NCBI GenBank assembly: GCA_020352495.1
Contig: CP070677.1
Span: 996,372 to 1,049,134 of the forward strand
DNA from: Candidatus Latescibacterota bacterium
GTDB taxonomy: Bacteria; Krumholzibacteriota; Krumholzibacteriia; WVZY01
DNA: 52,763 nucleotides
Reading direction: 5' to 3'
Numbering within the stretch: the stretch's first letter is position 1; each line of letters begins with the position of its first letter. Under the pieces are notes generated by a model. That model ran no database searches. It had not been told where the DNA came from and saw only the letters and a list, made by a program, of their open reading frames with translations. Below are positions 1,741 to 2,881 of this stretch, in pieces. The translations under genes and the position numbers were made by a program.

Positions 1741-2433
1741 ATGCAACGGAAACTCAACAGACCACACGTCAGCATCAATATGGCCATGTCGGCCGATGGA
1801 AAAGTATCGACCTACAAAAGGGAGACGTTTTCGCTTGGATCGGCCAAAGACCGGTACCTGATGGACGTCCTGAGGGCGAAGTCAGACGCCGTTGTCATCG
1901 GAGCGCGAACACTCCAGCTCGATGGTTGGGCGATTCGAATCCGCTACGCGGAGATCCAAAAAAAACGCATCGAGAAAGGCCTAACACCTCACCCGCTGAA
2001 CGTTGTTTTGAGCACAGATTTGGATCTTCCGGCCAAGAGGGAGTTTTTTACTCATCGGGAAACTGGAAAGCTGATCATCACAACCCGCTCGGCCTCCGCG
2101 ACCCGCGTGCGCCGGTTTGAAAAACTCGCGGAGGTCGCTGTCCTCCCGCGTAAACGGATCCGCCCACAAGACGCTCTTGACGTTTTGTCAAAGCGTGGTG
2201 CCAAACGGGTCCTCGTAGAGGGTGGCGGACCCCTCAACTACGCGTTCTTCAAGGCAAACCTCGTCGACGAGATCTATATCACCGTAACACCCAGAATCCT
2301 CGGTGGCACGGATGCGCCGACCGTTGCGGACGGAAAAGGGTTCCTCCTCGATACGCACCCCCGACTCGAGCTGGTGTCGAGCCGCCGGAGCGGTGACGAA
2401 GTATTTCTTAGATACCGCGTCGCTAAACGGTGA
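1741..2433 (+). CDS. RibD C-terminal-domain reductase (dihydrofolate reductase superfamily)
   Basis: 230 residues. It matches the pyrimidine reductase domain of RibD: RPHVSINMAMSADGK at the start, a DAVVIGARTL segment, and the NADPH-binding VEGGGPLNYAFF region. The N-terminal deaminase domain of full RibD (HAE...PCxxxGxTPPC) is absent. It could reduce the ribosyl chain of a riboflavin-pathway pyrimidine or a folate/pterin-like substrate with NADPH; stand-alone members vary in substrate and I cannot choose. Start 1741 is preferred over 1651 because the extra 30 residues do not belong to the fold. The 3' end overlaps the convergent peroxiredoxin gene by 11 nt. Confidence 0.8.
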   Translation: MQRKLNRPHVSINMAMSADGKVSTYKRETFSLGSAKDRYLMDVLRAKSDAVVIGARTLQLDGWAIRIRYAEIQKKRIEKGLTPHPLNVVLSTDLDLPAKREFFTHRETGKLIITTRSASATRVRRFEKLAEVAVLPRKRIRPQDALDVLSKRGAKRVLVEGGGPLNYAFFKANLVDEIYITVTPRILGGTDAPTVADGKGFLLDTHPRLELVSSRRSGDEVFLRYRVAKR

Positions 2434-2881
2434 GCGCTTCGAGCAACTCGCGAATGTGACCCTTTACCTTGACCCCGCGATACGCGTGAACGATCCTCCC
2501 CTTTTCGTCGATAATGAAGGTGCTACGACTGATCCCCTTGACCTTCTTTCCGTACATGTTTTTTTCTTTGATCACGCCATACTTTTCGCACACCTTCCCA
2601 TCGGGATCACTGAGCAGGGGAAAAGGAAGATCGTATTTGGTCTTGAATTTCTGGTGGGACTCAACGGTGTTTCTGCTCACACCAACCACAACGGCCTTTT
2701 TTGATTTGAATGCATCGATCTCGTCACGGAAATCGCAGGCTTCCTGAGTTCAACCCGATGTGTTGTCTTTTGGGTAGAAGTAAAGCACTACCTTCTTGCT
2801 CACAAAATCTTTGAGCGCGATCTTCTTTCCACTGTCCGAGACGAGTGAAAACGCCGGTGCTTTTTTCCCAACATCAGGCAT
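2423..2881 (-). CDS. bcp: Bcp-type peroxiredoxin with in-frame TGA at the peroxidatic cysteine (probable selenoprotein)
   Basis: 152 residues if the in-frame TGA is read through. Start 2881 has an ideal GGAGG 5 nt upstream. Residues 1-43 (MPDVGKKAPAFSL... YFYPKDNTSG) and 45-152 (TQEACDFRDEIDAF... TFIIDEKGRIVHAYRG) are one continuous Bcp/PrxQ protein in a single frame. Codon 44 (2750-2752) is TGA. In the family this is the catalytic Cys of PxxxTPGCT; the resolving Cys49 is kept. Such enzymes reduce peroxides with thioredoxin. A stem-loop suited to a bacterial SECIS follows the TGA, so selenocysteine is the likely residue. Alternatives are a nonsense change from TGC/TGT or a read error. Gene callers would report only 2423-2689. 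No selA, selB, selC or selD is visible in the window. Confidence 0.85.
2716..2735 (-). promoter_or_regulatory. Candidate bacterial SECIS hairpin within the peroxiredoxin coding sequence
   Basis: On the minus strand, CGATTTC pairs with GAGATCG (7 bp, one U-G wobble) around the six-base loop CGUGAC. The loop begins 21 nt after the UGA at 2752-2750 and has G as its second base. Known bacterial SECIS elements lie just 3' of the UGA inside the coding region, with a guanine in the first two loop positions; this hairpin meets both. Pairing is by eye; folding energy was not computed. Confidence 0.6.

What the first reader, a model, noticed from the sequence alone, without database searches (positions are those of the whole stretch)
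2423..2881. Probable selenocysteine-containing Bcp peroxiredoxin hidden behind an in-frame TGA
A full peroxiredoxin lies in one frame, with an ideal ribosome site, and is interrupted only by TGA at codon 44. That codon aligns exactly with the peroxidatic cysteine of the YFYPKxxTPGCT motif (here YFYPKDNTSG-U-TQEAC), and the resolving cysteine five residues later is intact. A random nonsense mutation landing precisely on the catalytic residue with everything else conserved is unlikely. Sec-containing peroxiredoxins are known in some bacteria (for example PrxU), but a Bcp-type version here would be missed by ordinary gene calling.
Basis: partly seen in the sequence, partly recalled or inferred. 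Interest (0 to 1): 0.92.

Follow-up and report, generated by a model that had tools for sequence, protein, structure and literature searches.

The report
Selenocysteine peroxiredoxin with a hidden codon
This gene encodes a Bcp-type peroxiredoxin, a family of peroxide-removing enzymes, whose catalytic codon is TGA both here and in related genomes, and the cell is predicted to read that TGA as the rare amino acid selenocysteine; such selenium peroxiredoxins are already described, so this is a new example and not a new kind.

Summary
The minus strand (2881-2423) carries a 152-codon Bcp/PrxQ-type peroxiredoxin broken only by TGA at codon 44 (2752-2750), the peroxidatic-cysteine position. Genomes of the same genus, family and order have TGA there. 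The part after the TGA is under purifying selection (dN 0.074, dS 1.30). Of 116 homologous loci fetched, 12 hold an in-frame TGA in the aligned region, 11 at codon 44. The genome has tRNA-Sec, selA, selB and selD. A hairpin 21 nt after the TGA fits the published bacterial SECIS model, as do 11 of 11 TGA loci against 10 of 105 Cys loci, though this gene's own hairpin is not significant against synonymous shuffles. TGA ends 21 of 38 likely genes picked. It is not new in kind: Sec-peroxiredoxins filed under COG1225 with a TxxU motif were listed in 2005. It adds a lineage, probably Krumholzibacteriota, whose Bcp-type proteins changed between Cys and Sec several times. Selenium incorporation and activity are untested.

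The parts
2423..2881 (-). Bcp/PrxQ-type peroxiredoxin gene, 152 codons plus TAG stop, with one in-frame TGA
2750..2752 (-). TGA, codon 44, at the peroxidatic-cysteine position; predicted selenocysteine
2735..2737 (-). TGC, Cys49, candidate resolving cysteine five residues after Sec
   Evidence: role inferred
2716..2735 (-). Predicted bacterial SECIS hairpin: 7-bp stem, 6-nt loop CGUGAC (2728-2723), loop begins 21 nt after UGA
2887..2892 (-). AGGAGG ribosome-binding site
2930..3745 (-). Upstream PHP-type phosphoesterase-like gene, same direction, 48 nt before bcp (best model 202.9 bits, below its cut-off of 400); kept beside bcp in L023 and L026
1651..2433 (+). Convergent RibD C-terminal-like reductase gene (best model 162.1 bits, below its cut-off of 186.45), overlapping the last bases of bcp; found beside bcp in L023, L024 and, as a fragment, L026

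Best explanation
The minus-strand gene at 2881-2423 encodes a Bcp/PrxQ-type peroxiredoxin whose codon 44, aligned with the peroxidatic cysteine, is TGA and is likely read as selenocysteine. Shown: the gene, the TGA at the catalytic position and its conservation in relatives, purifying selection after it, the Sec machinery genes in the genome, and a hairpin that fits the bacterial SECIS model. Inferred: SelB carries Sec-tRNA(UCA) to the UGA with the help of the hairpin. The selenolate of Sec44 attacks H2O2 or an organic peroxide and becomes a selenenic acid. Cys49 then resolves it to a selenenylsulfide (Sec44-Cys49), which thioredoxin or a similar thiol donor would reduce. The stated confidence is for a Sec-encoding Bcp-type gene; given that, I put the Cys49 step at about 0.8.
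For: Machinery: tRNA-Sec 67.7 bits (cut-off 47), ARAGORN tRNA-SeC anticodon TCA; selA 474.6 bits, selB 382.9 bits, selD 406.3 and 372 bits, all over cut-off. One selD has TGA (GUASK) where the other reads GCACK, a second likely Sec codon in this genome. TGA at codon 44 recurs in the same genus (83% identity), family (63%) and order (58%). After the TGA, against L023: dN 0.074, dS 1.303; before it: dN 0.114, dS 1.379; against L024 after it: dN 0.232 with dS saturated. Neighbours: PHP gene in L023 and L026, RibD-like gene in L023 and L024 plus a fragment in L026, of eight loci searched. SECIS model as quoted in PMC13188914: 11 of 11 TGA loci fit, 10 of 105 Cys loci fit. TGA ends 21 of 38 ORFs that I picked as likely genes. 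In the 80 genomes of the phylum searched, selA is over cut-off in 77 and selB in 73; of the ten among them that hold a TGA-bearing locus, selA in nine and selB in ten. No second Bcp at E 0.001: the other three hits in this genome score 46.9, 28.6 and 24.9 bits.
Against: No protein or selenium data. The window's own hairpin is only modest: in a synonymous-codon shuffle 12.75% of 400 shuffles fold as well, and the core alone is -7.2 kcal/mol, just short of the model's -7.5; with the neighbouring helix it is -9.8. Loop bases fall in a conserved Phe-Arg codon pair, so part of the conservation is due to protein coding. Fisher and Mann-Whitney values ignore relatedness. TGA at codon 44 also occurs in L078, whose genome (G080) has no selA or selB over cut-off, and in L137, whose genome (G066) gave no selA match though selB is present; misbinned contigs or incomplete assemblies are possible and were not tested. 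L028 has an in-frame TGA off the catalytic site. Of the eight loci searched for the neighbour genes, five (L025, L040, L041, L043, L044) gave no hit, and L024 no PHP hit (flanks of about 1.5 kb).
Confidence: 0.93

Rival explanations
1. Pseudogene or nonsense mutation: the TGA is a real stop and the gene is dead.
For: One in-frame stop; L028 shows that off-site TGAs do occur in this family.
Against: TGA at the identical codon in this genome and in one genome each of the same genus, family and order; dN well below dS after the TGA; no other frame damage; neighbours partly kept.
Confidence: 0.02
2. Sequencing or assembly error at 2750-2752.
For: Reads cannot be inspected here.
Against: Same TGA in genomes G001, G005 and G006, with synonymous sites between window and L023 heavily changed (pS 0.618 after the TGA).
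Confidence: 0.01
3. TGA is reassigned genome-wide (for example to Trp or Gly) and not specifically to Sec.
For: None found.
Against: 21 of 38 ORFs picked as likely genes in the window end in TGA; tRNA-Sec, selA, selB and selD are present; 105 of 116 homologous loci have Cys at the site.
Confidence: 0.005
4. The UGA is read as selenocysteine, but the enzyme works by a one-Sec route: Cys49 is not the resolving residue and an outside thiol reduces Sec44. (Confidence given the Sec reading.)
For: Seven of 11 TGA loci lack Cys at the +5 position, and four of these (L040, L041, L136, L137) have no other cysteine in the aligned protein.
Against: The window gene and its relatives L023, L024 and L026 all keep Cys49.
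Confidence: 0.2

Closest known systems
Selenocysteine-containing peroxiredoxin family, COG1225 (Bcp), motif TxxU (example WP_011365628.1)
   Same: Same domain family by label, TxxU motif (T41-S-G-U44), Cys homologues widespread (table passage of PMC9312934; PMC1088965 lists 43 Sargasso Sea sequences under COG1225 with TXXU).
   Different: Different lineage. WP_011365628.1 was not fetched, so no sequence comparison was made; the table row cites the Eubacterium acidaminophilum paper, so the family as listed may mix subfamilies.
Cysteine Bcp/PrxQ thiol peroxidase (NCBIfam NF006960; solved structures such as 5enu, 5iph, 3gkn)
   Same: Family and catalytic motif: 144.4 bits against a cut-off of 140; aligns with 5enu over query residues 3-150. 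A cysteine at +5 is found in 60 of the 105 Cys loci.
   Different: Predicted Sec instead of Cys at the catalytic site.
PrxU-type peroxiredoxin (NCBIfam NF040737; its link to the selenocysteine peroxiredoxin of Eubacterium acidaminophilum is recalled)
   Same: A peroxiredoxin with Sec (title of reference 58 in PMC9312934).
   Different: A different, longer subfamily: 55.5 bits against a cut-off of 270.

Membership tests
Sec-containing peroxiredoxin (COG1225/Bcp, TxxU) | Bcp/AhpC-TSA domain over most of the protein | tested here: met
   PF00578 142.2 bits, residues 4-132; NF006960 144.4 bits over cut-off 140, residues 4-150. COG1225 itself was not searched.
Sec-containing peroxiredoxin (COG1225/Bcp, TxxU) | TxxU motif: in-frame TGA at the position of the peroxidatic Cys of homologues | tested here: met
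   T41-S-G-U44; TGC/TGT at that codon in 105 of 116 loci
Sec-containing peroxiredoxin (COG1225/Bcp, TxxU) | TGA conserved in relatives | tested here: met
   one genome each of the same genus, family and order
Sec-containing peroxiredoxin (COG1225/Bcp, TxxU) | bacterial SECIS just after the UGA | tested here: met
   fits the published model; on its own not significant against synonymous shuffles, 12.75%
Sec-containing peroxiredoxin (COG1225/Bcp, TxxU) | Sec-decoding machinery in the genome | tested here: met
Sec-containing peroxiredoxin (COG1225/Bcp, TxxU) | selenium present in the protein | not testable with these tools
   needs 75Se labelling or mass spectrometry
Sec-containing peroxiredoxin (COG1225/Bcp, TxxU) | peroxidase activity | not testable with these tools
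   needs an enzyme assay
PrxU (NF040737) | curated model score of at least 270 bits | tested here: not met
   55.5 bits

The most novel reading that the evidence does not exclude
In one little-studied phylum in which selenocysteine decoding is nearly universal, the catalytic cysteine of Bcp-type peroxiredoxins became selenocysteine at least twice and probably three times. The window's lineage kept the resolving cysteine, whereas another lost every cysteine and became a one-selenocysteine peroxidase. This would be a natural series that shows how Sec gain changes a catalytic cycle.
Probability: 0.55. Interest if true: 0.5.

Novelty: new member of a known kind. Interest (0 to 1): 0.32.

Why it matters
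It adds a well-supported candidate selenoprotein, absent from a plain table-11 ORF list of 100 aa or more, to a poorly known bacterial group in which 77 of 80 genomes searched carry selA over cut-off. The group offers Sec and Cys versions of one small, assayable enzyme in near relatives, with and without a resolving cysteine, so the old question of what Sec buys over Cys could be tested on natural pairs.

Tried and rejected
Pseudogene, sequencing error and code reassignment were considered and rejected. PrxU membership was rejected by score. A scan of the window for further genes read through TGA gave 153 candidates; I looked only at the eight that overlap long ORFs by under 40%, and judged the seven other than this gene to be noise by eye, without a homology search. 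Rfam at gathering thresholds found nothing in the window. Viral contigs gave no relative. A fixed seven-pair stem tested on all 116 loci is complete only in the four TGA loci of the own order, because the hairpin register differs between clades; the published model was used instead. The DNA alignment was not used further. Papers: two searches joining the phylum name with selenoprotein or selenocysteine found one paper, whose passages are unrelated; the library lacks most subscription journals. The phylum name is inferred only from names given to relatives of the window's UvrC.

Full report
What is there. The minus strand from 2881 to 2423 holds a complete reading frame of 152 codons with an AGGAGG ribosome site, closed by TAG and interrupted only by TGA at codon 44, 2752-2750. 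Read through, it is a Bcp/PrxQ-type peroxiredoxin, and residue 44 aligns with the peroxidatic cysteine of solved Bcp-type chains.

Is it more than chance? All 116 loci fetched as relatives of the protein (L022-L137) were examined. They are a capped sample, since one search kept the best 80 of 587 relatives, and the rows include some more distant peroxiredoxins. Codon 44 is TGC or TGT in 105 and TGA in 11. Twelve loci have an in-frame TGA in the aligned region, and in 11 it is codon 44. The nearest relatives that carry it lie in the same genus (83% identity), family (63%) and order (58%). Two further same-family genomes, G002 and G004, had only weaker, stop-free matches, and G003 had none. Between window and same-genus gene, the part after the TGA has dN 0.074 and dS 1.303, and the part before it dN 0.114 and dS 1.379: the protein past the TGA is under selection. 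Of eight loci searched for the neighbour genes, the upstream PHP-like gene is in L023 and L026, and the convergent RibD-like gene in L023 and L024 with a fragment in L026; the other five loci gave no hit.

Can the cell read it? The genome, a single contig of 4.31 Mb, has tRNA-Sec with anticodon TCA, selA, selB and two selD genes over cut-off. One selD is fused to what looks like a cysteine desulfurase and has Cys; the other has TGA at the matching site (the desulfurase label is my reading of the sequence, not a search result). TGA is otherwise a normal stop here, ending 21 of the 38 ORFs that I picked as likely genes. In the 80 genomes of the phylum that were searched, selA is over cut-off in 77 and selB in 73. 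Ten of the 80 hold a TGA-bearing locus (codons); of these, nine have selA and ten have selB over cut-off. tRNA-Sec was searched in the own genome only.

The SECIS element. The published bacterial model asks for a loop of 3-9 nt with G in one of its first two positions, a stem of 4-16 bp, 16-37 nt between UGA and loop, and folding energy of -7.5 kcal/mol or lower (passage of PMC13188914). I applied it to the minimum-energy fold of the 45 bases after codon 44, with a stem of at least four pairs. The window fits: 7 bp, loop CGUGAC, 21 nt, -9.8 kcal/mol. So do 11 of 11 TGA loci, against 10 of 105 Cys loci. Against this: shuffling synonymous codons (with the window's codon usage for all rows) gives an equally good fold for the window in 12.75% of 400 trials. 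The 11 TGA loci have mean z -1.60 with four below 0.05; the 105 Cys loci have mean z -0.22 with eight below 0.05. The evidence for the hairpin is thus good as a group and modest for this gene alone, and relatedness is not corrected for.

How it most likely works (inferred). SelB delivers Sec-tRNA to the UGA. Sec44 reduces peroxide and is resolved by Cys49, five residues later, to a selenenylsulfide that a thioredoxin-type donor reduces. The role of a +5 resolving cysteine is recalled from Bcp biochemistry, not taken from a call. It is the only Bcp-type gene found in this genome; the other three hits score 46.9, 28.6 and 24.9 bits.

History. A tree was made of 75 of the 116 rows: those with E at most 1e-20, namely all 11 TGA rows, 19 Cys rows of the phylum and the first 45 named Cys rows. 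Counted against the 19 phylum rows only, the Sec label needs three changes, of which well-supported branches force two. Counted against all 64 Cys rows, it needs five, of which three are forced. Such counts cannot tell gain from loss, and the bootstrap had not fully settled. Four Sec rows of family f6 nest inside Cys rows, mostly of the same family, which points to Cys-to-Sec change there. The two f7 Sec rows sit on a long branch (1.71). The window's clade (own, genus, family) is well supported, but its link to the order-level L026 is an open fork, so one origin for the order rests on the shared neighbours. The four f6 Sec proteins have no other cysteine in the aligned stretch, so they would have to work without an internal resolving thiol.

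Results against. L078 (a Selenomonadales assembly) has TGA at codon 44, yet its genome shows no selA or selB over cut-off. G066, holder of L137, gave no selA match but has selB. L028 has TGA at aligned codon 30, where near relatives such as L027 and L029-L034 have Trp, with Cys at codon 44. These show that TGA in such assemblies is not by itself proof of Sec. No expression or selenium data were available.

What is known. I saw passages found by term, and one longer stretch of PMC1794560, not whole papers. PMC1088965 lists 43 Sargasso Sea peroxiredoxin selenoproteins under COG1225 with motif TXXU. PMC9312934 lists Peroxiredoxin, COG1225 (Bcp), TxxU, WP_011365628.1, and cites for it the paper on the Eubacterium acidaminophilum peroxiredoxin, so the listed family may include PrxU-like proteins. 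PMC1794560 counts 12 Sec-peroxiredoxins and, by my reading of its table columns, five Cys-to-Sec events; its text says that in most families with rare selenoproteins and widespread Cys homologues the selenoproteins evolved from Cys ancestors. PMC13188914 repeats the family in 2026 under PF00578. By these labels the gene belongs to a known kind; I could not compare it with a named member. The searches found no paper in the held library on selenoproteins of Krumholzibacteriota. That name is itself inferred: among the 120 UvrC relatives listed, the nearest named one (80% identity) is labelled Latescibacterota, two more (64-65%) Latescibacterota or Latescibacteria, and five (60-70%) Krumholzibacteria, -bacteriia or -bacteriota.

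Verdict. A well-supported new member of a known selenoprotein family. The modest surprise lies in its relatives: repeated Cys/Sec change in one phylum, in one branch together with absence of all other cysteines.

Noticed in passing
L028, in-frame TGA at aligned codon 30: A Bcp homologue in the single-contig genome G028 has Cys at codon 44 but an in-frame TGA where near relatives have Trp; possibly a nonsense mutation or a sequence error.
   Followed up: partly
L016 and L017: The genome has two selD genes: one with Cys, fused behind a region that reads like a cysteine desulfurase, and one with TGA at the matching site.
   Followed up: partly
L040, L041, L136, L137: Sec-type Bcp homologues of one family have no other cysteine in the aligned protein, unlike the window gene.
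   Followed up: partly
L078 (genome G080): TGA at the catalytic codon in an assembly named Selenomonadales, without selA or selB over cut-off; perhaps a misbinned contig.
   Followed up: partly
window 10639-11205 (+): OsmC-like protein with a weak match (52.5 bits, cut-off 95) to NCBIfam's OsmC-related (seleno)protein model; its ORF has no in-frame TGA.
   Followed up: no
L138 (G000:C1:194088-194446): Only a 359-base piece of 16S rRNA was found in the genome; the locus holds 100 N, so the rest may be a gap or masked.
   Followed up: no
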